NCBI GenBank assembly: GCA_040755755.1
Contig: JBFLZW010000053.1
Coordinates: 1 to 25,794 of the forward strand
Length of the DNA stretch: 25,794 bases
Direction: 5' to 3'
DNA from: a bacterium
GTDB lineage: Bacteria > SZUA-182 > DTGQ01
Made by a program: the position numbers and the translations under genes. Below the pieces are notes generated by a model. It had not been told where the DNA came from and searched no databases. It saw only the letters and a list, made by a program, of their open reading frames with translations. This document shows positions 6,920-17,369 of the stretch, piece after piece (within the stretch, counting starts at the first letter, position 1; each line of letters opens with the position of its first letter).

Positions 6920-7977
6920 ACCAGCCGAATCGAGCAGCCGTCATTCTGGCCGCAGGCCAGAGCACCAGAATGAAATCTCAACTCAGCAAGGTGCTGCATC
7001 CTCTGTGCGGACGTCCGATTATCCGCTACATAACTGAGCTGGTTGCAGCGGTCGATGCCAGGCCGGCAATAATAGTGCTTGGACATCAGGCGGAGAAAAT
7101 ACAGCAGGAGCTCCATGATGTACCCGTTGAATTCGCCTATCAGAAAGAGCAACTGGGAACAGCCCATGCAGTGTCTCAAACCAGGGAGATGCTGGCTGAT
7201 TTTTCCGGTATCGTCTTGGTCTTAAACGGCGATACCCCGCTTTTAACTCCCCGTGAGGTGACCGACCTGATTCAGTTTCATCAGCGGACGCAGGCCGAAT
7301 GCACCCTTCTGAGCAGTGACGTACCGAATCCCTTCGGCTATGGCCGCATTCTGCGCGATGAAGGGGGAGGAGTTCTGGGAATCGTGGAAGAGAAAGACGC
7401 TTCAGAACAGCAAAAGAAAATTACCGAAATCAACTCCGGAATCTACTGCTTCAATTCTCGGTCCCTCTACAGCGCATTAAGCAAGATCAATAATCACAAT
7501 GCCAAAAAAGAATATTACCTGACTGATTCGGTGGCCATTCTGCGTCAGGAGGGAAAGCTGGTCCAGGCCCTCAAGGCAGCGGATTACCGGACTGTGCTGG
7601 GGATTAATACCAGGATGGAGCTTGCCGAGGCCAGCCGCATCATCCGTCAAAGAATAGCCGCTGACCTCATGGCTGAGGGAGTAACCTTTATTGACCCGGA
7701 TAACACCTATATCGATTACGGTGTCCACGTCGGTCAGGACACGGTTATCTGGCCATACTGCGTGATCGAAGGCCACTCCAGCATCGGTAAAGGCTGCCAT
7801 ATCGGTCCCTTTTCCTGGATTGCCCATGCTGTTCTGGAAGATGGAGTGCAGATCGAGGGAGGGTGCCGCATTCAGGGTGGCATGGTTACTGCCGGATCGA
7901 GAGTACCGTCATCTCTCCCTGTCAGCCACGGGGTAGTTAAAAATTGTATTCATCAGGCGAAAGAAGATTCGCGGTAA
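6916..7977 (+). CDS. GlmU-like UDP-GlcNAc pyrophosphorylase lacking the acetyltransferase end
   Basis: This 353-aa protein overlaps mtnA by 4 nt (ATGA). Residues about 7-235 form a nucleotidyltransferase domain: LAAGQSTRMKSQLSK nucleotide loop, QLGTAHA, LNGDTPLL, FGYGRI, EEKDA and EINSGIY. This is the pattern of GlmU uridylyltransferase. A short left-handed beta-helix follows (about 255-335, VxIGxxT-type hexapeptides), then the protein stops. Full GlmU is about 450-460 aa and carries its acetyl-CoA and catalytic His/Lys residues in the part missing here. So it likely makes UDP-GlcNAc, or another NDP-sugar, from a sugar phosphate but cannot acetylate. The next gene starts 31 bp later, with no remnant of the missing part. 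Confidence 0.85.
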   Translation: MNQPNRAAVILAAGQSTRMKSQLSKVLHPLCGRPIIRYITELVAAVDARPAIIVLGHQAEKIQQELHDVPVEFAYQKEQLGTAHAVSQTREMLADFSGIVLVLNGDTPLLTPREVTDLIQFHQRTQAECTLLSSDVPNPFGYGRILRDEGGGVLGIVEEKDASEQQKKITEINSGIYCFNSRSLYSALSKINNHNAKKEYYLTDSVAILRQEGKLVQALKAADYRTVLGINTRMELAEASRIIRQRIAADLMAEGVTFIDPDNTYIDYGVHVGQDTVIWPYCVIEGHSSIGKGCHIGPFSWIAHAVLEDGVQIEGGCRIQGGMVTAGSRVPSSLPVSHGVVKNCIHQAKEDSR

Positions 7978-8008
7978 GAAAAAGAAAAACAAAGAGAAGT
8001 GAACCACC

Positions 8009-8968
8009 ATGTTAGCAAGATTCTTTCAAAAATCAGACGACGTACATAAGCAGGCGGAAAGTAAGCAACCGGAAAAGGTCACTAAAAAGATATGGTCTGT
8101 GGCCGGAGGCAAAGGGGGAACGGGAAAAAGCATTATCGCCTCGAGCATCGCTGTCCAATTGGCCCGCAGGGGCAAAAAAGTGGTCATCATCGATGCTGAC
8201 CTTGGCAGCGGCAATCTGCATTCATATCTCGGAGTTACCCCGGCTTCCATCACTCTGGCCGATTTTCTCAGGAATCGAACATCCCACCTGACCGATGCCC
8301 TGGTTAACACCCAGTATGAAAATCTCCACCTGATCAGTGATGCCAATGAAGTGCTCGGGCTGGCCAATATCAGCAGCCAGTTAAAGGAAAACCTGATTCA
8401 ACAGATCAAAGACCTTGACTTTGAATATATTATCCTGGATGTGGGTGCCGGTACCGCGTATAATAATATTGATTTTTTCCTCATTTCTGACAATGGGCTT
8501 CTGGTTGCCGTACCTGAGCCGACCTCAATCGAAAACATGTACCGGTTTATCAGAAGTTGCTTGAATCGTAAATTAATGTGCAGGTTTCAGGATTCTCCCT
8601 ACCAGCCCCTCATAGAAAAGGCTGCCTATCCACGAGAAGCTGGAGGATTTCGAACTATTTATGAATTGGTGGAAAAGCTCTATCAACTTGACCCACCGGC
8701 AGCGGAAATAATGGTAGATGAGATTTTAAAATTCAGGCCGCGGTTGATTATGAACCAGGTCCGGTCTCAAATCGATATTCAGGCGGGCGATTCGATTCGT
8801 GATGTAACACGCAAATACCTGGGAGTGAATTTGAATTATATCGGATATGTCACCTATGATGATCATGTCAAATTATCAGCCAGAAAACGGATCCCTTTGT
8901 TTCAGGAATACCCTAACAGCGGAGCGGCGGTATGCATCCGAAATATTGTGAACAGATTTCTTGGATAG
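8009..8968 (+). CDS. MinD/FlhG-type ParA-superfamily ATPase
   Basis: This 319-aa protein has a deviant Walker A motif, residues 35-41 (KGGTGKS), with the signature Lys preceding it. It also has the Walker A'-type DADLGSGNLHSYLG (about residue 63) and Walker B-type YIILDVGAG (about 138). FlhG/FleN-type members have similar DADLG.ANLH wording and regulate flagellar number or other polar structures. No flagellar genes are nearby, so the cargo is unknown. It pairs with the J-domain/HTH gene 40 bp downstream, which suggests a shared role in positioning or regulation. Confidence 0.85.
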   Translation: MLARFFQKSDDVHKQAESKQPEKVTKKIWSVAGGKGGTGKSIIASSIAVQLARRGKKVVIIDADLGSGNLHSYLGVTPASITLADFLRNRTSHLTDALVNTQYENLHLISDANEVLGLANISSQLKENLIQQIKDLDFEYIILDVGAGTAYNNIDFFLISDNGLLVAVPEPTSIENMYRFIRSCLNRKLMCRFQDSPYQPLIEKAAYPREAGGFRTIYELVEKLYQLDPPAAEIMVDEILKFRPRLIMNQVRSQIDIQAGDSIRDVTRKYLGVNLNYIGYVTYDDHVKLSARKRIPLFQEYPNSGAAVCIRNIVNRFLG

Positions 8969-9008
8969 CGGCCCGGGCAGAAAATTTCCTCGAAGAGGTA
9001 GATAATTA

Positions 9009-9659
9009 ATGAAAAAAGTTGAAGAAATGAATTATTACGAACTACTCAATGTCGAATCAACAGCCAGTAAAGAAGAAATCCAGAAAGCCTATAACCTGGC
9101 CTGCCAGACCTATCAGATTGATTCCCTGGCCACCTATTCGGTTGTCTCGGAAGGGGAAAGAAGCCAGATTCAGCAAAGGATCGAAAAGGCCTACCGAATT
9201 TTAATGGATGATCGCGAACGGGCAAAATATGACTACCGGATCGGTATCTCCGGCCAGCGCAAGGCGCAGGACTACCGGCAGACGGGCAACAAAGTCCAGG
9301 GTCCTCTATCCGAGGGAGGAAAAGAACAACCTTCAGCTTCCTCTGGGTGCGGCGCGAATTCATCCGCAAGCGATACCACTGAAGAACCAAAACACCAGGA
9401 GCCCCCTCCGGATATCTCCGACCCCCAATACCTGAAAAAACACAGAGAACGAAAGGGCATCTCCCTCCAGGAGATTTCAGAAGCTACCATGATCAGTATC
9501 CATGCACTGGAAGACCTGGAAAGGGGCGAATACAGCAGATTTCCCGGACGAGTCTACATCGTCGGCTTTTTACGTGCCTATGCTGAATACATCGGCATCG
9601 ATGTGCAGCAGGCCAAAGCTCACTTTGAAGTTCTGTATGCCAATAAGCCGAAGAAGTAG
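9009..9659 (+). CDS. J-domain-like protein fused to RodZ-type helix-turn-helix
   Basis: This 216-aa protein has an N-terminal DnaJ-like domain (residues about 6-78: NYYELLNVESTASKEEIQKAY, later RIEKAYRILMDDRERAKYDYRI), a Ser/Gly/Pro-rich linker (about 80-140) and a C-terminal HTH of the RodZ/HTH_25 type (about 142-212: LKKHRERKGISLQEISEATMI...FVGFLRAYAEYIGID-like). The HPD tripeptide that stimulates Hsp70 is absent; QID stands near that place. So this is probably not an active DnaK co-chaperone but an interaction module. RodZ-type HTHs can bind MreB rather than DNA. No membrane segment is present. Confidence 0.8.
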   Translation: MKKVEEMNYYELLNVESTASKEEIQKAYNLACQTYQIDSLATYSVVSEGERSQIQQRIEKAYRILMDDRERAKYDYRIGISGQRKAQDYRQTGNKVQGPLSEGGKEQPSASSGCGANSSASDTTEEPKHQEPPPDISDPQYLKKHRERKGISLQEISEATMISIHALEDLERGEYSRFPGRVYIVGFLRAYAEYIGIDVQQAKAHFEVLYANKPKK

Positions 9660-9779
9660 ACTTGGTTGCCTCCCATCCGAAAGATTCGGGGAAATCGCAC
9701 CAGGAATGGTGATGTACCCGCTAACCCTGCCCTGAGCGGGAGGATGGTCCTTCTGCCGACACAGATGCAAGCAAATAGA

Positions 9780-9806
9780 GGGTGGGGCTTTTGCCCCACC
9801 AAATAC
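9780..9806 (+). repeat. 27-bp direct repeat flanking the MNT/HEPN cassette, copy 1
   Basis: GGGTGGGGCTTTTGCCCCAC plus CAAATAC. The core GGTGGGGC-TTTT-GCCCCACC is a perfect 8-bp stem with a 4-nt loop. It recurs at 10512-10538 with one mismatch in the same orientation. The copy ends 12 nt before the MNT start. Upstream, 9660-9779 holds only small hairpins, such as CCCGCT...AGCGGG at 9717-9740. Confidence 0.75.
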
Positions 9807-9818
9807 TGCTTACAATAT

Positions 9819-10121
9819 ATGACGAAAGAATTTAAAGAATACTTAAAAAAGGAATTAATAGAAAGCCTAAGTCCTGAACTGGAAGTTCAGAAAATCATAG
9901 TATTTGGTTCATTCGTTAAATCTGAAAACCCAAACGATATCGATGTTGCCATTTTCCAAAGCAGCAATGCATCGTATCTAGAGTTGGCTATGAAATACCG
10001 AAAGTTAACCAGAAAGATCGCGAAAATGATCCCACTGGATATTATTCCAATCAAGCCGGATGCTCAGAATAATTCATTTCTTTCAGAAATTGAGGCCGGA
10101 GAACTCATATATGAAAGATGA
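9819..10121 (+). CDS. MNT-domain nucleotidyltransferase antitoxin
   Basis: This 100-aa minimal nucleotidyltransferase has G30-S31 followed by D40-x-D42 and a third acid at D74, forming the polymerase-beta-like active site. In HEPN/MNT modules the MNT protein is the antitoxin and can AMPylate the HEPN toxin. I start at the ATG at 9819, since the upstream in-frame extension runs through the flanking repeat and lacks homology to the fold. The gene overlaps the HEPN gene by 11 nt. It is clearly more AT-rich than its neighbours, a sign of transfer. Confidence 0.85.
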   Translation: MTKEFKEYLKKELIESLSPELEVQKIIVFGSFVKSENPNDIDVAIFQSSNASYLELAMKYRKLTRKIAKMIPLDIIPIKPDAQNNSFLSEIEAGELIYER

Positions 10122-10494
10122 AGCAAAGTTATGGTTGGATTATGCCAGAGAAAATCTGAAATCTGCAAAGGTATTATTAACAAGCGATTTATATAATCCT
10201 TGCTTACAGAATGTTCAACAAGCCGTCGAAAAAATGCTCAAAGCTTTACTTATTGAAAATTCATGCAAGGTAAAGAAAACTCATAGTATTACTGAATTGA
10301 GGAATATATTAGAAATAAATGGAATTTATGTCAATTTAACCGATGAAGAATGTGATTTTTTAGATTCGATCTATCTCCCCTCGAAATATCCAGTCAGCAA
10401 TGTGCTCCCTTATTATGAATCCAATAATGAGCTTTGTAAGAAGGGAATTTCAATTGCAGAATCTCTCCTCAATCGATTGGGAACTATTCCATAG
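10111..10494 (+). CDS. HEPN-domain toxin of MNT/HEPN module
   Basis: This 127-aa all-helical HEPN protein has WLDYARENLKSAKVLL at the N-terminus, then the hallmark NVQQAVEKMLKALLIE (about residues 31-46), KTHSITEL (about 54) and YLPSKYP (about 89). HEPN toxins of this pairing are often RNases, but I see no clear R-x4-6-H motif here, so catalytic status is uncertain. The start ATG overlaps the MNT gene end, giving translational coupling. Codon and base use are AT-rich like MNT. A second copy of the flanking repeat begins 17 nt after its stop. Confidence 0.85.
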   Translation: MKDEAKLWLDYARENLKSAKVLLTSDLYNPCLQNVQQAVEKMLKALLIENSCKVKKTHSITELRNILEINGIYVNLTDEECDFLDSIYLPSKYPVSNVLPYYESNNELCKKGISIAESLLNRLGTIP

Positions 10495-10511
10495 GAAACC
10501 TTAAAGTAGTA

Positions 10512-10538
10512 GGGTGGGGCTTTTGCCCTACCAAATAC
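10512..10538 (+). repeat. 27-bp direct repeat flanking the MNT/HEPN cassette, copy 2
   Basis: Same orientation as 9780-9806, with 26 of 27 identical; the single change (GCCCC to GCCCT) creates an alternative GTAGGG...CCCTAC pairing. The two copies bracket exactly the two toxin-antitoxin genes. It may also serve as a terminator-like hairpin, though no U-tract follows. Confidence 0.75.
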
Positions 10539-10604
10539 CGCACGCGATCTCATCGCCGATCCTAACTGGCTGCGAATTTATCGCCCGGTGTGCTTCAGAG
10601 CCTT

Positions 10605-11603
10605 TCATATCTGAGCTTCGCGCAAGAACCTGCACGCTTCTTCAGGAGGAGTAGGATTGATATAGAATCCTGTCCCCCACTCAAATCCTGCTACATGAGT
10701 AAGCTTGGGAATGATCTCAATATGCCAGTGATAGAAGCTGGCCTCTTTCTCGTAAAAGGGGGCTGAATGAATGAGGAAATTGTAGGGTGGATTGTTCAGA
10801 GTGCGGGTGATCCGCTGCAGGACGCCCTTCAGCATTTGCCCCAGGGCGCGGAGATGATCCGGAGAGATGGCTTCAAAATAAACAGCATGCGCTTTCGGAA
10901 TGACCCAGGTTTCAAAGGGAAAGCGGGAGGCAAAAGGAGAAAGGGCTATGAAGTGCTGATTCTGATCGATCAGCCTGACCTCCATGTCCAGTTCCTGATG
11001 AATGATGTCGCAAATAACGCACCGGTCCCGGTAGAGGTAATAGGTGTTGGTGCCACGGATCTCCTCGACCACTCTTTTGGGAATGACCGGCAGGGCAATG
11101 AGCTGAGAGTGCGGATGATCGAGCGAAGCCCCGGCCGCGTGGCCCTGGTTTTTGAAAATAAGTACATACTGAAACCGCGGGTCCCGCTTCAGGTCAATGA
11201 CCCGGTCCTGGTAAGCCTGAAGAACCTGAACGAAGTTATCCAGCGGTAAATTGGGCAGGGGTAAATCATGGTGAGGAGTTTCAATGATAACTTCGTGGGC
11301 GCCTACTCCATTCATCTTGTCATAAAGCCCCACCGCCCGCTTGTCCAGCCCGCCTTCGATTCTCAAGGCAGGGAATTTATTCGGCACTACCCTCACTGAC
11401 CATCCGGGCGTATTGGGCCGGGTTCCCGGCTGCCGATAGGCAAGAATTTCAGGAGGCGTCTTCTCCTCATTGCCATTACAAAATGGGCAAAAGCCCGTCC
11501 TTTTTTCTTCCGGTGGCGGAATAAATTCCGATGGCCGCCTGGCCCGCTCAGTGGCAATAATGACCCACCGTCCGATAATCGGATCTTTCCGTAATTCAGG
11601 CAC
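10605..11603 (-). CDS. galT: Galactose-1-phosphate uridylyltransferase
   Basis: This 332-aa HIT-superfamily enzyme exchanges UMP between UDP-glucose and galactose-1-phosphate (Leloir pathway). Visible features are RxDPIIGRWVIIATERARRP at the N-terminus, zinc-type CPFC (about residue 40), VVPNKFPAL, the catalytic HPHSQ with its preceding Asp (about residue 163), CVICD, and YHWHIEIIPK near the C-terminus. The length fits bacterial GalT. The start is GTG at 11603 with AAAGGAGC upstream. No galK or galE is adjacent. Some short GalT-like proteins act on other sugar phosphates, so the substrate is moderately sure. Confidence 0.9.
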   Translation of the reverse strand: MPELRKDPIIGRWVIIATERARRPSEFIPPPEEKRTGFCPFCNGNEEKTPPEILAYRQPGTRPNTPGWSVRVVPNKFPALRIEGGLDKRAVGLYDKMNGVGAHEVIIETPHHDLPLPNLPLDNFVQVLQAYQDRVIDLKRDPRFQYVLIFKNQGHAAGASLDHPHSQLIALPVIPKRVVEEIRGTNTYYLYRDRCVICDIIHQELDMEVRLIDQNQHFIALSPFASRFPFETWVIPKAHAVYFEAISPDHLRALGQMLKGVLQRITRTLNNPPYNFLIHSAPFYEKEASFYHWHIEIIPKLTHVAGFEWGTGFYINPTPPEEACRFLREAQI

Positions 11604-11644
11604 TTGGCTGCTCCTTTGTAAAATATTACATAAATTGTCTAAAA

Positions 11645-11673
11645 ATTGTACAATCAGTTCAATGAAATGTCAA
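11645..11673 (-). promoter_or_regulatory. Sigma-70-type promoter for galT with palindromic -10
   Basis: On the minus strand, TTGACA (11673-11668), a 17-bp spacer and TACAAT (11650-11645) give a near-consensus promoter about 42 bp ahead of the galT start codon. The -10 overlaps a perfect 10-bp palindrome, ATTGTACAAT (11645-11654), which could be a repressor site. The rest of 11604-11915 holds a CAGTGGTCAGTGG-type repeat and no supported gene. Confidence 0.65.
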
Positions 11674-11710
11674 TAGTGCTGAAAGAGGAGCAGGCAGGAG
11701 GGAGTTGCGA

Positions 11711-11780
11711 GTGGTCAGTGAGCAGTGGTCAGTGAAGGAGTCAGGAACCAGAAGAATGGTCAGTGGTCAGTGGTCAGAAG
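11711..11780 (+). repeat. CAGTGGTCAGTGG-type dispersed repeat, copy 2
   Basis: Degenerate tandem units (GTGGTCAGTGAGCAGTGGTC, then TGGTCAGTGGTCAGTGGTCA) cover this intergenic stretch. A 60-codon open frame crosses it but is only repeat sequence. A copy in inverted orientation lies at 13747-13801, so the exported protein and the NiCoT-like gene sit between two inverted copies. Confidence 0.6.
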
Positions 11781-11915
11781 CCGGTGAGCAGGGGGGCAGG
11801 AAGCAGTATACGGCGATCAGGAGGAGAATGGCACGTTTTTTGAGAGCGATAAGCTTTCAGCATGATCACTTGCTCTTTCTACCATAACTCTTCATCAAGG
11901 AAGGATTCGTAAACC

Positions 11916-12863
11916 GTGTCATTCATCGCCGCTCGAAAACAGAACCCAACACGATTGCTGTCAATGCTCATTATCGGCACAACCATCCTCGTGGGTACAC
12001 AGATGATAATCATTCCGGAATCTTTGGCTCAATGGCCTCCGCTTGCCGCTAATGCCTTATACTCCGGGCTGTATCAGCCTTCATTTTCGCTCAATTATTT
12101 TCCATTCGGCAGCTACAACAATAGCTATCCTTTCAACAACTCTCCGGGCTCATATCCCTTCAGCAGCTACAATAGCTCCTTTCCTCTCGGCAGCTCCAAT
12201 CCGTGGTTGCTGAACATGTATCTCAATTCATATCTGAGCACATATCTGAACCCGTATCGGCCCTCCCTCCTGGGATACTCCCTTACTCCTTCTCTCTGGT
12301 CCTGGATATCCGGCCTTTCCCTTCCCCAGCAATGGCCGCCTCCGCCCTTGTCCAGCAGATTTTTTTTCCCCCCTTCTGCCTTGATCGGAAGCCCGGTAAC
12401 TACTCTGGCTTCCGTACAGAATGAAGAGTATGCCGTTTACTCGGCATTGATCAGTTCACTGGATACTCTGAGCCGGGCGGGGGTAATCCTCGGTGAGGTC
12501 CGTATCAGGAACCATACCAGTGCATATTCTTCGGGTAACGATGCCGCCACTCTCAATTATTTAGCCCGGAATCTGGATAAAATAGCCCAGGAGACTATCC
12601 TCGACTACCAGATCAAAAACAGGCAGGAGTATCCGCTCGGTGATGATTTCACTCTCCCCTTCAGCTATAAGCTGGTCGGTGATGAGGAACCCTATCAGGT
12701 AATTGAGCTTTCACGGGTGGGATTTAATCGCCGGGGGGACCAGGCACTTGTTTATGTGGGGCAATTATATGGGCCTGCGGTTGGCTCCGGGTATTACTGC
12801 TTCCTCACAAAAGTAAATGGAGTCTGGGTATACCAAGACGGGACTGTGGCCTGGATTTCATGA
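11916..12863 (+). CDS. Exported protein with Ser/Tyr/Asn/Pro-rich region, function unknown
   Basis: This 315-aa protein starts at GTG with AAGGAAGG upstream. It has an N-terminal basic stretch, a hydrophobic segment (about residues 15-36) and a likely signal-peptidase site after SLAQ. Residues about 50-160 are low-complexity, with repeated SYN/YPF/NPY-like wording and many Pro and Leu. The C-terminal 150 residues (from EEYAVYSALISSL) form a globular domain containing ELSRVGFNRRGDQALVYVGQ, GSGYYCFL and a W-rich end. I recall similar C-terminal domains in uncharacterised exported proteins, but no function is known to me. Confidence 0.75.
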   Translation: MSFIAARKQNPTRLLSMLIIGTTILVGTQMIIIPESLAQWPPLAANALYSGLYQPSFSLNYFPFGSYNNSYPFNNSPGSYPFSSYNSSFPLGSSNPWLLNMYLNSYLSTYLNPYRPSLLGYSLTPSLWSWISGLSLPQQWPPPPLSSRFFFPPSALIGSPVTTLASVQNEEYAVYSALISSLDTLSRAGVILGEVRIRNHTSAYSSGNDAATLNYLARNLDKIAQETILDYQIKNRQEYPLGDDFTLPFSYKLVGDEEPYQVIELSRVGFNRRGDQALVYVGQLYGPAVGSGYYCFLTKVNGVWVYQDGTVAWIS

Positions 12864-12902
12864 CGAGAATAATGACCATATATTTTCTTCCGTTCTCTGC
12901 CC

Positions 12903-13727
12903 TCATATTCCGGCTACAAAGAGCCAAAGTCCTGCCAGACCGCAGATCGCTCCCAGGAGAAAGGCGGACAGGCGATCAATCCTGCTCATCAGATCGATCC
13001 CCTTGCCCCGGTATACAATTCCGAGAAAATAGACGGCCAGAAACAGTCCAACCAGAAAAGCAGCCAGGGAAATCAGTATCCCTGGCAAGGGGAAGACGAG
13101 AGCGGTCATGGAAACTGCTAACAGGGATAATATATTCTGGAGCTTTGCCAGGCGGTTGATCTGCCCGGAGGAGTAATGCTGATGATGATGGCTTCGCTCT
13201 TCCTCCGGGGTATGATAATGCAGATGCTCATGCCGGTGGGCGTGGGGATGCTGATGATCCAAAGGTGTTGATCCGGGTTTATCAATACTGCGGGGAACAT
13301 GGAAATGGTCGGCATGCTCCCCCCCTTCCCTTCCGGCAGATTTAACCGGCTTGGAATGAAGGTGGCCATGCTCGTGCTCATGGGGATGTTCATGCTGATG
13401 GAGCTGCTTTGGCGGCACCCAGAAGAATTCATAAAAGCTCTGCAGCCCCAAAGCCCAAAAAGCGGACCCGAGGGCAGGCCGGGATGACAAACAGGACAGG
13501 CCGGAAAGTTTAATTCTCAATAGCCAGAGCGGGACAACGAAGGTCAAGGCGTGTCCAAGGTGTATCAAGCCTACCTTCAATGAAACCCAGGAAGGCCGCT
13601 GATAAATATCCTGTGCTTTCCTGGAGTTCAGGATATCGATGATATGATCTCCCCTGAGCCCATGAAAGAGTCCGAGGAAAAATATCGCCTGAATGACCCA
13701 AAATGAACCAGTCATAAGGTAGCTCAT
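12903..13727 (-). CDS. NiCoT/RcnA-like membrane protein with His-rich loop
   Basis: This 274-aa membrane protein has HGLRGDH at residues 22-28, the HX4DH nickel/cobalt-binding signature in the first helix, and LIHLGHAL (about 55-62), which resembles the second family motif. A cytoplasmic or periplasmic loop (about 108-185) carries some 23 histidines, many as HxH. Two or three hydrophobic helices follow (about 200-272). It is therefore probably a Ni/Co (or other divalent metal) transporter or efflux protein. It is shorter than classical eight-helix permeases. No clear SD precedes the ATG at 13727; the ATG at 13715 is an alternative. It converges on the exported protein gene. Confidence 0.7.
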   Translation of the reverse strand: MSYLMTGSFWVIQAIFFLGLFHGLRGDHIIDILNSRKAQDIYQRPSWVSLKVGLIHLGHALTFVVPLWLLRIKLSGLSCLSSRPALGSAFWALGLQSFYEFFWVPPKQLHQHEHPHEHEHGHLHSKPVKSAGREGGEHADHFHVPRSIDKPGSTPLDHQHPHAHRHEHLHYHTPEEERSHHHQHYSSGQINRLAKLQNILSLLAVSMTALVFPLPGILISLAAFLVGLFLAVYFLGIVYRGKGIDLMSRIDRLSAFLLGAICGLAGLWLFVAGI

Positions 13728-13746
13728 AAAATAGTTATAGTTGAAA

Positions 13747-13801
13747 GTTATCGGTGTTCAGTTTGTTCACTGACCACTCGCCACTGGCCACTGACCACTG
13801 T
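13747..13801 (-). repeat. CAGTGGTCAGTGG-type dispersed repeat, copy 3 (inverted)
   Basis: The plus strand reads CACTGACCACTCGCCACTGG and CCACTGACCACTG, the reverse complement of the unit seen at 11711-11780. It fills most of the gap between the NiCoT-like gene and ahbC. Confidence 0.55.
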
Positions 13802-13803
13802 CT

Positions 13804-15033
13804 TTACTGCCCACTGCTGCCGCACTCCTGCGGAGTGAGGTAGCACTGAGGATCTTCCATCCAGGGATCGCCGTAAACCCGAAGGGCGCGCACCCGGAAG
13901 GAGCCTCCACAGGCATCAATCCACTGGCACTGACTGCACTTTCCCTTGAGCAGGGGCTTTCGGTTCTTCAATCCGGCCATGACAGGATCTCGAGTATCCA
14001 TCCAGATTTCCGAGAAGGGGCGCTCCCGGACATTGCCCAGCGTATGGTCCAGCCAGAATTGATCCGGGTGTACATTCCCGCAAAAGTCGATTTCACCGAT
14101 GCCGACACCGGTTGAATAAAGCCCTCCGCCATTCCATTTCAGCAGGCTCATGACTTCTTGCGCCCGCTGCGGGTTCTTCTGTTTCAATTTCAGGTACAGA
14201 TAGATCCCATCCACATGGTTGTCTACAGTCAGGATCTCTTTGGCCAGTCCGCGCCTGGCAAAGTCCTCGCTCCGCTGCAGGATAATGTCCATAGCCCTGC
14301 GGGATTCTTCAGCGGTCAGGTCATCGTGCTTGATATCGACTCCCCGGCCGGAATAGACCAGATGATAAAAACAGGCCCGGTCGATGTTTTCAGCCTCAAT
14401 GAAGTCAAAAATCCTGTGCAGATCCTGGGCATTTCTCCGGGTCAGGGTCAAGCGCAGCCCTACCCGCTGATCAACTTCGACGCAATTTCTGAATCCCCGC
14501 ATAGCCCGCTCGAAGGCACCCGCTACACCGCGGAACTGATCATTCACCTCGCCAATCCCATCCAGGCTGATGCCCACATAGGTAAAGCCCGTGTCTTTCA
14601 GTTTCCGGGCAACTTCTTCCGTGATCAGGGTGCCATTGGTTGACAGCGTCGGCTTCACTCCCTGCTCCAGAGCATAAGCGGCCAGTTCGAAAAGGTCCTT
14701 TCGAATCAACGGTTCACCACCGGAAAAAAGAATGGCCGGTACCTTGAATTTGCCAAGATCGGCCAGCATTGTTTTGGCTTCATCCGTGGTCAATTCTCCC
14801 TGATAGGAGATATTTTCAGAATCGGTATAACAGTGAACGCATTTCAAGTTGCAGGTTCTGGTCGAATTCCAGACCACAATGGGCCGCCTTGAGGAAGCGC
14901 TCGGAGGAACCCGGCTGGTCAGACCCTCCCAGCACTGCGGGAGCCTGTGGTGGCTTTTGTGTATCTTTTGGCCATAACGAATGTCATCACTGGGAGTTTC
15001 CTCTCCGCAGTATAGTCTGGTAATATTGATCAT
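13804..15033 (-). CDS. ahbC: Radical SAM/SPASM protein, AhbC-like 12,18-didecarboxysirohaem deacetylase
   Basis: This 409-aa protein is related to AhbC/NirJ, which remove acetate side chains from 12,18-didecarboxysirohaem in the alternative haem route of anaerobes. Evidence: the start MINITRLYCG with a following IRYG; radical SAM cysteines C61-x3-C65-x2-C68; LFSGGEPL; GISLDGIGEVNDQFRG; FYHLVYSGRG; VDNHVDG; VHPDQFW and LGNVRERPFSEIW; and C-terminal SPASM cysteines (CSQCQWIDACGG, DPQCYL). I chose the ATG at 15033, since family members begin there and AAAGGA lies just upstream; the longer frame to 15075 is unlikely. Other ahb genes are not in the window. A role on the neighbouring peptide cannot be excluded. 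Confidence 0.78.
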   Translation of the reverse strand: MINITRLYCGEETPSDDIRYGQKIHKSHHRLPQCWEGLTSRVPPSASSRRPIVVWNSTRTCNLKCVHCYTDSENISYQGELTTDEAKTMLADLGKFKVPAILFSGGEPLIRKDLFELAAYALEQGVKPTLSTNGTLITEEVARKLKDTGFTYVGISLDGIGEVNDQFRGVAGAFERAMRGFRNCVEVDQRVGLRLTLTRRNAQDLHRIFDFIEAENIDRACFYHLVYSGRGVDIKHDDLTAEESRRAMDIILQRSEDFARRGLAKEILTVDNHVDGIYLYLKLKQKNPQRAQEVMSLLKWNGGGLYSTGVGIGEIDFCGNVHPDQFWLDHTLGNVRERPFSEIWMDTRDPVMAGLKNRKPLLKGKCSQCQWIDACGGSFRVRALRVYGDPWMEDPQCYLTPQECGSSGQ

Positions 15034-15061
15034 GACGGTTTTCCTTTCAGTTTCAATGATC

Positions 15062-15137
15062 AGAGAACCTGACAAGCCAGGGGATTGGCGGCGAATTGCC
15101 AGCCAGGGGGTGAAAAATCCGGCCTCTGTGGTTCTCT
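15062..15137 (-). promoter_or_regulatory. Structured leader upstream of ahbC, class unknown
   Basis: Perfect 8-bp arms, AGAGAACC at 15062-15069 and GGTTCTCT at 15130-15137, enclose about 60 nt with further short stems (GGC/GCC-type). The element ends 28 nt before the ahbC start codon, a usual place for a cis-acting RNA. It does not match the cobalamin, SAM, Moco or c-di-GMP riboswitch cores as I know them. It could act from either strand. Apart from this and the precursor leader, 15034-15425 has no gene. Confidence 0.35.
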
Positions 15138-15349
15138 TCCGCTTTGCCTGTCAGCACGCACGGTATATTTGTCTGTACGGTGAATTATGCAGAGTGCATC
15201 CTCATCATAGCTTTTTTTTCCCCATTTTTCAATGCCGACTATCAGCATTCAGAATCCCCTTCAATTTGCCACGATATGTGCCCTTGATAACCGGCCATCC
15301 CGTACGTTAGCGATTTTACCTCCATTATACCGAGAACTAAGATACATCA

Positions 15350-15403: not shown

Positions 15404-15425
15404 ACTTAATGAGGAGGAGAAAATC

Positions 15426-15821
15426 ATGAAAAGAGAGGGAGAGAAAAATGTCTTTGTATTGCCCAATTCTCAGATAAAATTCACCTTCACTGAGGCATAT
15501 TCCCAGGAGGCGCTGGCTGATCTGACTCGTGATGTAGTAAGAGACCCTGAACTGGCCAGAAGATTCAGGGATGATCTCCAGGATGTCCTCGCCAGGGTTG
15601 GTATTCAGGTGACGAGTAAAAATTCCCGGAGAATTACGGATGAAGACATCCTGGTTGCCCTTGGACATCGGAGCGCTGAAAAGCAGACGGCTGCCGGCCC
15701 GTCCCGGATATTAGGACAGGGGCCTGAATATATCGTCGCTGTAGCTGTAGTAGCCGCAGTATTTCAGGGTTCCTCCAATCTGCCCGCACCCGAGGATGAG
15801 CAGGAGGTGGCCATAACCTGA
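15426..15821 (+). CDS. Candidate RiPP precursor, NHLP/Nif11-like leader
   Basis: This 131-aa protein has a very strong SD. Residues about 23-60 read like the leader of nitrile-hydratase-like or Nif11-like RiPP precursors: EALADLTRDVV, then DPELARRF, then DDLQDVLARVGI. A hydrophilic middle (61-100, containing ITDEDILVALG) is followed by a compact IVAVAVVAAVF segment (103-113) and an acidic Pro-containing tail. A Val/Ala-rich core is typical of peptides that are C-methylated or epimerised by radical SAM enzymes. A B12-type radical SAM gene follows in the same direction after 168 bp. An alternative is a small regulatory or membrane-associated protein. The family is not certain. Confidence 0.5.
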   Translation: MKREGEKNVFVLPNSQIKFTFTEAYSQEALADLTRDVVRDPELARRFRDDLQDVLARVGIQVTSKNSRRITDEDILVALGHRSAEKQTAAGPSRILGQGPEYIVAVAVVAAVFQGSSNLPAPEDEQEVAIT

Positions 15822-15867
15822 GAGGGGGAACGGACAGATTTAATCGATAAGGGAAAAAGGTTAAAGG

Positions 15868-15924
15868 TGCTTCTCCTCAACTGCTGGAAGACGCCAGCGC
15901 GTGACCACCAGTTGAGGAGGAGCA
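15868..15924 (+). promoter_or_regulatory. Nested hairpin between peptide and radical SAM genes
   Basis: A 16-bp stem (15868-15883 with 15909-15924, one G-U pair) contains an inner GCTGG-AAGACG-CCAGC hairpin (15883-15898, sharing its first base with the outer stem). There is no U-tract, so it is more likely an attenuator, processing site or mRNA stabiliser than a simple terminator. Such a structure could raise precursor over enzyme expression. Confidence 0.6.
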
Positions 15925-15989
15925 TTGTACAAAGAGAAAAGAATACGTTCTGAACGCAAGTACAGCCAAAAGGAGGGTGGGAAGCCGGA

Positions 15990-17369
15990 ATGCCCCAGCA
16001 GCCCTGTGTTGTGGTCAGTTGCCCGGTCATGTCTTTCGTAGATAATACCCTGGTCGCATCCATGCAGGATTCCTACCGTGATAGTCCGGCACTCGGTGTG
16101 TATCTGCTGGCAGCTCACCTTCACCGGAAGGGGTATCCGTGTGATGTGCTGGATTGGGTAGCTTCTCCGCAGCTTTCCCTTGAGGATGTTGTCTGCAGGC
16201 TGCTCAACTATGAAGTGGTACTCCTGAGTGCCAATTCACTCAACTGGGCGATAGCCAGGATTCTGGCCCGGAAGGTCAAAGAGCGCAATCCCGGAATCAA
16301 AACCTGCGTCGGCGGACCGCACCCCACCTGCTATCCTCGATCGATCATAGCCAGTGGATGCTTTGACGGTCTTTTCAGAGGAGAAGCGGATCGCTCCATT
16401 CACCTGGTTTGTGAAGTATTGCGATCGGGCAGGGAGCAGGAAATTCCCGGTTTTTTCCTGACTCGAAACGCAGCGGATAAAGCCAGTGCGGTCCAGGTCA
16501 TCCAGGAACCGGACCTGACCCGGTTCGACTGGCGGCCAGCCTATGATCTCATCCCCGACTCCCAATACGGGACCATACCGGTCCTGACCTCCCGGGGGTG
16601 CCGGTTCAACTGCACCTTCTGCTCAACTATCGGACACAGGAACTGGCGATCCTATCCGGCCCAAATCGCAGTCGAACAGCTCCTCTATGCACTCCCGCAT
16701 TGCCAGAGGACCCGCAGCAAAAAGATAAACATTGTTGATAATATCTTTACTGCCGATCATCAGCGAATTCTGGATCTCTGCAAGATGCTGCCGGAAGATG
16801 CCTTCCGCCGCAGGCTGACGTACGATGCCACCATTGACGATCTCAGGGACCAGGAGCTGCTCGAAGCTCTGGAGCCCTTTACCAGTGACCTGCTTGCCGG
16901 TGCGGAAGTCATCAGCCATGACGAGGCCCGGAAAATCCATAAAGCCGTCTCTCCTGAGCTGATCCAGCAGGCGGCCCAAAACCTGCACAAATATAATTTA
17001 GGCCAGAGGACCGTTTTCAGCTTCATCATCGGTTTCCCCTGGCATACAAAAGAAAACTGTATCAATACGCTCGAATTCGTCACCAATCTTATTCTGGACT
17101 ATGGAGTAAGGATTTACCTTCAGTGGTACTGGCCGATACCCGGCTCTGCTCTGTGGGATGAGCTTGAGCGGGAGCGAAAAATCGGGATCGAAGTAGTGGA
17201 TGAACCCGGATTCTTCCGCCGGAGCGAGTGGTTTTATGCGGTCAGAAACATGAGCTCTGAAGATGTCCAGATGGTTGATGAAAGAATACGGCCCGTACAG
17301 ATGCTCCTCTCAATCCGTCATGGCTCACCGGTGCGGCGTCCGCTGGAATATTCACCACCCATGATCTGA
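15990..17369 (+). CDS. B12-binding-domain radical SAM enzyme (BchE/P-methylase-like architecture)
   Basis: This 459-aa protein has an N-terminal cobalamin-binding-type Rossmann domain (residues about 1-150: SPALGVYLLAAHL, VVLLSANS, GGPHPT) that lacks the DxHxxG histidine. A radical SAM barrel follows with C204-x3-C208-x2-C211. Further on are NIVDNIFT, LLAGAEVIS, FSFIIGFPWHTKEN and YWPIPGSALWDE. This architecture is used by C-methyltransferases and ring-forming enzymes acting at unactivated carbons; the substrate here is unknown. The start is ATG with AGGAGGG 12 nt upstream. The peptide gene lies just upstream on the same strand, so it is the likely substrate (inference). No transporter or protease gene follows. 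Confidence 0.85.
   Translation: MPQQPCVVVSCPVMSFVDNTLVASMQDSYRDSPALGVYLLAAHLHRKGYPCDVLDWVASPQLSLEDVVCRLLNYEVVLLSANSLNWAIARILARKVKERNPGIKTCVGGPHPTCYPRSIIASGCFDGLFRGEADRSIHLVCEVLRSGREQEIPGFFLTRNAADKASAVQVIQEPDLTRFDWRPAYDLIPDSQYGTIPVLTSRGCRFNCTFCSTIGHRNWRSYPAQIAVEQLLYALPHCQRTRSKKINIVDNIFTADHQRILDLCKMLPEDAFRRRLTYDATIDDLRDQELLEALEPFTSDLLAGAEVISHDEARKIHKAVSPELIQQAAQNLHKYNLGQRTVFSFIIGFPWHTKENCINTLEFVTNLILDYGVRIYLQWYWPIPGSALWDELERERKIGIEVVDEPGFFRRSEWFYAVRNMSSEDVQMVDERIRPVQMLLSIRHGSPVRRPLEYSPPMI

What the first reader, a model, noticed from the sequence alone, without database searches (positions are those of the whole stretch)
15426..17369. Candidate RiPP locus: leader-like peptide plus B12-type radical SAM enzyme
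Seen: a 131-aa peptide with strong SD, a DPELARRF...DDLQDVLARVGI segment like NHLP/Nif11-type leaders, a compact IVAVAVVAAVF segment near the end, and a co-directional 459-aa radical SAM protein (C204/C208/C211) with a cobalamin-type N-terminal domain. Known: B12 radical SAM enzymes C-methylate peptides such as polytheonamides. Inferred: the enzyme modifies the Val/Ala segment. No transporter, protease or other tailoring gene is in the operon, so this would be a minimal system.
Basis: partly seen in the sequence, partly recalled or inferred. Interest (0 to 1): 0.75.

Follow-up and report, generated by a model that had tools for sequence, protein, structure and literature searches.

The report
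Two-gene methylated-peptide system candidate
A small protein with a leader of a known natural-product type, and the vitamin-B12/radical enzyme encoded next to it, are inherited together in three related uncultured bacteria and, in a diverged form, in a bacterium of another phylum, which suggests a very small pathway that chemically decorates (probably methylates) the peptide's valine/alanine-rich end.

Summary
Window 15426-15821 (+) encodes a 131-aa, Cys-free peptide. 15990-17369 (+) encodes a 459-aa B12-binding/radical SAM enzyme with C204-C208-C211. The pair is conserved as a two-gene unit in three genomes of one family (peptide 80/61%, enzyme 80/66% identity). Downstream genes differ in each. 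No peptide homologue lacks the enzyme. The peptide is distantly but significantly related to the NHLP clan of RiPP precursors: its profile beats 300 of 300 shuffles, and four peptides take ranks 1-4 among 164 ORFs. It also carries the NHLP/bacteriocin motif 2 in the expected place (ITDEDILVALGH against LSDEQLDAVAGG). A 31%-identical enzyme in another phylum is followed directly by its own NHLP-clan peptide, again with a Val/Ala/Ile-rich tail. Best reading: a minimal proteusin-like RiPP pair in which the enzyme modifies the hydrophobic C-terminal segment, most likely by C-methylation. That chemistry is inferred, not shown. The enzyme is not PoyB/PoyC-type (CX3CX2C, not CX7CX2C), and it falls far below the cut-off of every NCBIfam model. 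Export would have to be unlinked; a C39 exporter exists elsewhere in the genome. New variant of a known kind.

The parts
15411..15419 (+). Shine-Dalgarno-like GAGGAGGAG region of the peptide gene
   Evidence: sequence
15426..15821 (+). 131-aa Cys-free NHLP-clan-like precursor peptide (stop included)
15507..15629 (+). residues 28-68, the stretch aligned to the Os1348/NHLP-clan profile (motif-1-like DPELARRFRDDLQDVLARVGI)
   Evidence: hhalign score 28.6, E 3.9e-5, 0 of 300 shuffles reach it
15633..15668 (+). residues 70-81, ITDEDILVALGH, in register with NHLP motif 2 LSDEQLDAVAGG; inferred end of leader
   Evidence: motif from PMC2887384
15714..15782 (+). residues 97-119, GQGPEYIVAVAVVAAVFQGSSNL, conserved hydrophobic segment and inferred site of modification
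15866..15926 (+). intergenic stem-loop (18-bp outer stem) between peptide and enzyme genes; single copy in the genome by the pattern used
15990..17369 (+). 459-aa B12-binding/radical SAM enzyme
16074..16388 (+). B12-binding domain, residues 29-133
16584..17081 (+). radical SAM domain, residues 199-364
16599..16622 (+). CX3CX2C motif C204/C208/C211

Best explanation
A minimal proteusin-like RiPP (or RiPP-like) pair. The 131-aa product is a precursor: residues 1-81 are a folded NHLP-clan-type leader ending in a double-glycine-like site (ALG-H), and residues 82-131 are the follower with the conserved segment GQGPxYIVAVAVVAAVFQGSSNL. The neighbouring cobalamin-dependent radical SAM enzyme, which has no detectable RRE domain, binds the leader and acts on the Val/Ala/Ile-rich segment. 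The most likely reaction is SAM/methylcobalamin-dependent C-methylation at sp3 carbons. Release or export, if any, would use unlinked machinery such as the C39-ABC/HlyD exporter elsewhere in the genome. Shown: the genes, their conserved pairing, the NHLP-clan relationship, the enzyme class, constraint on both genes, an independent second pairing. Inferred: leader/core boundary, binding, site and kind of modification, export, biological role (unknown).
For: Pairing: the peptide is found in only 3 of 386 genomes, and the same 3 hold the only close enzyme orthologues (E below 1e-290; next 4e-80). A further genus of the family, G003, has neither. Genes downstream differ in all three. Independent pairing: the next-best enzyme (G063, another phylum, 31% identity) is directly followed by a 114-aa peptide that matches NF038399 Os1348-family NHLP clan (E 3.2e-5) and PF14407 (E 0.0011). 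Relationship: hhalign of the window family to the Os1348/NHLP-clan profile scores 28.6, E 3.9e-5; 300 column shuffles average 10.4, SD 2.0, max 17.1. In a ranking of 164 ORFs the four peptides are ranks 1-4. Among 626 small ORFs around 46 B12-rSAM loci only the G063, G001 and G002 peptides score above 16. Motif 2 lies at residue 69/70 in all four and is otherwise rare (5 of 1629 small ORFs have it, those four included). Tail: all four have 10 of 14 V/A/I; 7 of 1380 ORFs reach that, the pairs' own peptides included, and 16 Os1348-family members reach at most 6. Enzyme: the best NCBIfam score is ApyD (89 bits against a 750 cut-off), a demonstrated RiPP tyrosine beta-C-methyltransferase (PMC10635010). 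Tree: the enzyme clade with G063 and G048 has support 100/100. No Cys in any of the four peptides, against thioether or lanthionine chemistry.
Against: No biochemical evidence. The G048 member of the enzyme clade has no NHLP-like peptide within its 14-kb stretch, so pairing is not universal. G063's peptide start is my choice of an internal in-frame ATG. The follower segment is conserved, unlike the hypervariable cores of classic NHLPs (PMC2887384). There is no GG, transporter or protease at the locus. Direct comparison of the window family with the G063 peptide alone is weak (hhalign E 0.014, probability 3%). The peptide's structure model is poor (pLDDT 56) and gave no significant fold match. 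The enzyme's HMM scores are spread over non-RiPP B12 enzymes too (HpnJ, MJ_1487; for G063, BchE leads).
Confidence: 0.55

Rival explanations
1. The enzyme does modify the peptide, but not by methylation: for example epimerisation, C-C crosslinking or another B12-dependent rearrangement.
For: B12 radical SAM enzymes include non-methylases such as OxsB, ThnL and BchE (PMC13331322). G063's enzyme scores best against BchE. OxsB is among the closest solved structures. The residue aligned to TokK Trp76 is Leu84, so the lower cobalamin face does not settle the class.
Against: The known peptide-acting B12 radical SAM enzymes read about here (PoyC, ApyD) are C-methyltransferases; ApyD is the top NCBIfam model for the window enzyme.
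Confidence: 0.2
2. The peptide is a small protein modified in place, with no leader removal or export; it works inside the cell or at the membrane through its hydrophobic end.
For: No protease or transporter at the locus; GH or GQ instead of GG; strongly constrained C-terminal segment; helix 101-112 predicted, at low confidence.
Against: Motif 2 sits where NHLP leaders end; a C39-ABC exporter with HlyD partner is present elsewhere in the genome.
Confidence: 0.2
3. The enzyme acts on a small molecule, lipid or tetrapyrrole (HpnJ- or BchE-like), and the peptide is an accessory or carrier protein.
For: Weak HMM similarity to HpnJ, HpnR and BchE; a NirJ1/AhbC-type radical SAM gene lies divergently upstream.
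Against: All these scores are far under their cut-offs; the upstream gene is not seen beside the pair in G002, and G001's contig ends there. The partner is an NHLP-clan protein in two phyla.
Confidence: 0.1
4. Chance adjacency of two unrelated genes.
For: Only one bacterial family carries the close homologues.
Against: Joint presence and absence across 386 genomes, different flanks, and a second pairing in another phylum.
Confidence: 0.02

Closest known systems
[quoted passage not shown] PoyA, MprE, SrpE
   Same: Leader of about 81 aa, motif-1-like helix segment, motif 2 directly before the follower; predicted helices then a strand; modified by separate enzymes
   Different: Does not reach TIGR03793 (no match in the genome at E 0.01 or better); GH in place of GG; conserved rather than hypervariable follower; one tailoring enzyme only; no transporter at the locus
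Os1348 family NHLP clan protein (NF038399; Pseudomonas Os17; PDB 6lk7) and Frankia peptide PF14407
   Same: Significant profile similarity over residues 28-68; the G063 partner peptide hits NF038399 at E 3.2e-5
   Different: Of the 16 shorter Os1348-family members examined none has a V/A/I-rich tail; no close relative of the window enzyme lies in the family's flanks
ApyD, B12 radical SAM tyrosine beta-C-methyltransferase of aminopyruvatide biosynthesis (NF050148)
   Same: Top NCBIfam score for the window enzyme; B12 plus radical SAM; RiPP substrate
   Different: 89 bits against a 750 cut-off; ApyD is longer (model 645 positions) and RRE-containing (PMC10635010); different precursor
PoyB/PoyC (polytheonamide C-methyltransferases)
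   Same: B12 radical SAM enzymes acting on a proteusin; PoyC methylates a valine
   Different: Cys motif CX7CX2C against CX3CX2C; polytheonamide is made by several enzymes

Membership tests
RiPP precursor of the NHLP/proteusin class | Score above the TIGR03793 cut-off | tested here: not met
   No match to TIGR03793 in the genome at E 0.01 or better
RiPP precursor of the NHLP/proteusin class | Statistically significant relation to the wider NHLP clan | tested here: met
   hhalign to the Os1348-family profile, 0 of 300 shuffles; ranks 1-4 of 164 for the four peptides
RiPP precursor of the NHLP/proteusin class | Motif 2 ending in Gly-Gly at the leader/core boundary | tested here: inconclusive
   ITDEDILVALGH in register, but GH instead of GG
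RiPP precursor of the NHLP/proteusin class | Conserved partner modification enzyme | tested here: met
RiPP precursor of the NHLP/proteusin class | Post-translational modification and leader removal | not testable with these tools
   needs mass spectrometry
Cobalamin-dependent radical SAM enzymes (class B) | N-terminal B12-binding domain plus radical SAM domain with CX3CX2C | tested here: met
PoyB/PoyC-type C-methyltransferases | CX7CX2C motif | tested here: not met
   C204-X3-C208-X2-C211; motif from PMC5682303
RiPP maturation radical SAM C-methyltransferase TIGR03975 | Score above cut-off 281.85 | tested here: not met
   49.7 bits
ApyD (NF050148) | Score above cut-off 750 | tested here: not met
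   89 bits
Nif11-derived peptides (PF07862/TIGR03798) | HMM match | tested here: not met
   No match at E up to 1 in Pfam or NCBIfam

The most novel reading that the evidence does not exclude
A previously undescribed class of one-enzyme proteusin-like pathways, present in at least two bacterial phyla, in which a stand-alone B12 radical SAM methyltransferase without a detectable RRE iteratively C-methylates a conserved Cys-free Val/Ala/Ile-rich segment, giving a dedicated conserved hydrophobic peptide rather than a variable natural product.
Probability: 0.35. Interest if true: 0.65.

Novelty: new variant of a known kind. Interest (0 to 1): 0.5.

Why it matters
If right, this is one of the smallest proteusin-like systems: one precursor and one B12 radical enzyme. 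It would be a tractable model for how such an enzyme without an RRE engages a folded leader and installs methyl groups on unactivated carbons, and it adds an enzyme clade outside the named families. The conserved follower points to a specific function rather than a diversifying natural product.

Tried and rejected
Nif11 membership: no HMM match at E up to 1. Viral relatives: none of the peptide; only generic 21-25% enzyme matches. Plasmids: no peptide match, generic enzyme matches. Foldseek and VIA-align with the peptide model: nothing significant; 6lk7 (Os1348) appears at E 3.8, so I did not use it as evidence. The enzyme structure model was too poor (pLDDT 53.5) to search with. PDB sequence hits of the peptide (homeodomains, Crov588) look like composition or helix matches. 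More pairs around 46 enzyme loci: none beyond those known. A terminator at the intergenic hairpin: no T run in the window, not called by the scan. My motif-1 pattern matched none of the four peptides, so motif 1 rests on the profile comparison alone.

Full report
What is there. The window is a whole contig (C53, 25,794 bp) of a 5.26-Mb, 88-contig assembly. On the + strand a 131-aa ORF (15426-15821) with a strong GAGGAGGAG ribosome site is followed, after 168 bp, by a 459-aa ORF (15990-17369). The second has a B12-binding domain and a radical SAM domain with C204-X3-C208-X2-C211. No named NCBIfam enzyme family claims it: ApyD leads with 89 bits against a cut-off of 750, then HpnJ and others. 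The first ORF has no significant single-sequence family match.

The pair is a real, inherited unit. Homologues of the peptide occur in only three of 386 genomes searched: the window's, one of the same genus (G001, contig JAILZY010000059, 80% identical) and one of the same family (G002, 61%). In each the enzyme follows directly (80 and 66% identical). The close enzyme orthologues are in the same three genomes only. G003, another genus of the family, has neither. Genes after the pair differ: an unknown gene and a GNAT-like ORF in the window, a lyase-like gene (argininosuccinate lyase by my reading) in G001, a nucleotidyltransferase-like gene in G002 (my reading). So no third gene is seen to travel with the pair. 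Both genes are under purifying selection. The C-terminal segment is the most constrained part between G000 and G001 (dN/dS 0.02, from only 2 nonsynonymous and 16 synonymous changes), and is less so towards G002 (0.5-0.6), where it keeps its hydrophobic pattern and GSSNL.

What the peptide is. I collected Os1348-family NHLP-clan members from 386 genomes, built a profile and compared it with the three-sequence peptide family. The score was 28.6 (E 3.9e-5); 300 column-shuffled versions averaged 10.4 and never passed 17.1. Ranking 164 ORFs of seven loci against the profile put the G063, window, G001 and G002 peptides first to fourth. The order motif 1 - motif 2 described for NHLPs (PMC2887384) is present: DPELARRFRDD... 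then ITDEDILVALGH, in register with LSDEQLDAVAGG. A relaxed motif-2 pattern, written after seeing the sequences, is found in all four peptides at residue 69/70 and in 5 of 1629 small ORFs, those four included. In MprE and SrpE the LXXXXL motif sits 12 to 7 residues before the core (PMC10858898); I70-X4-I75 puts the boundary after H81, close to the 81-aa MprE leader (PMC12455567). The AlphaFold2 model is poor overall but shows helices 27-39, 41-49, 51-57 and a strand 60-64, pLDDT near 70, as expected for this fold; it found no significant structural match.

An independent second case. The best enzyme outside the family (G063, another phylum, E 4e-80) is followed by a peptide gene whose product hits NF038399 (E 3.2e-5) and PF14407. 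Its tail (ILAVATGASIVVAVSTPAF) is as rich in V/A/I as the window peptide's: 10 of 14, a level seen in 7 of 1380 ORFs, those of the pairs included, and at most 6 of 14 in 16 Os1348-family members. Direct comparison of the two peptides is weak, so they are related through the clan rather than closely. In the enzyme tree, window, G001, G002, G063 and G048 form one group with support 100/100. The G048 enzyme has no such peptide in its 14-kb stretch, so the group is not strictly paired. Among 626 small ORFs around 46 B12 radical SAM loci, none but the known G063, G001 and G002 partners scores as NHLP-clan (the window's own peptide was scored).

How it probably works. The leader presents the hydrophobic follower to the enzyme, which uses SAM and cobalamin. 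C-methylation is my best guess because PoyC and ApyD, the demonstrated peptide-acting enzymes read about here, do that. Other B12 radical chemistry is possible. The lower cobalamin face does not decide: TokK Trp76 aligns to Leu84, two residues before the invariant Trp86. The absence of Cys from all four peptides argues against thioethers. Export would be unlinked: contig C10 encodes a peptidase-containing ABC exporter (TIGR01193, 524.9 bits, cut-off 523.85) beside an HlyD-type adaptor. Nothing ties that exporter to this peptide.

Between the genes lies an 18-bp outer stem (-40 kcal/mol, z -6.3). G001 has a stem with the same arm sequence apart from matched changes (z -6.2); G002 has a different one. 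It is single-copy in the genome by the pattern used. It may set precursor over enzyme expression; this is inference.

Verdict. It is a minimal variant of a known kind, NHLP-clan precursor plus B12 radical SAM enzyme, in an enzyme clade outside the named families.

Noticed in passing
L122 (G000:C21) 7469-15190: A second RiPP-like locus in the same genome: ABC transporter, C39 peptidase, radical SAM/SPASM protein, a PqqD/RRE-containing protein (PF05402 E 8e-8) and a 51-aa peptide MAYERPSIEALGDAQMGEVMGAWAFALVFVPFLSFTWPFGTGGVGIYLVL shortly after it.
   Followed up: partly
L041:2383-2385 (G002): The G002 enzyme has an in-frame TGA in place of the invariant Trp219 codon while the rest of the frame is intact: assembly error, fresh pseudogene or readthrough; not resolved.
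   Followed up: no
window 15866-15926 and L001:1081-1149: The 3' arm of the intergenic stem repeats the peptide gene's own Shine-Dalgarno variant in both genomes (GGAGGAG in the window, GGAGAAG in G001); the 5' arm could pair with either. One informative position only.
   Followed up: no
L041:1590-1633: The G002 gap holds a different strong hairpin (GCAGGGCTTTAGCCCTGC type), which looks like a dispersed palindromic repeat; its copy number was not checked.
   Followed up: no
window 13804-15075 (-): NirJ1/AhbC-like radical SAM/SPASM protein (562 bits NirJ1, 518 bits AhbC, both below cut-off 650) divergent from the pair.
   Followed up: partly
window 9666-10494 (+): Overlapping nucleotidyltransferase-like and HEPN-like small ORFs, which look like an MNT/HEPN toxin-antitoxin pair; from reading the sequence only.
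   Followed up: no
window 12903-13727 (-): Membrane protein with a very His-rich loop (HEHPHEHEHGHLH..., HRHEHLHYH), weak NicO match (E 0.05); perhaps a metal transporter.
   Followed up: no
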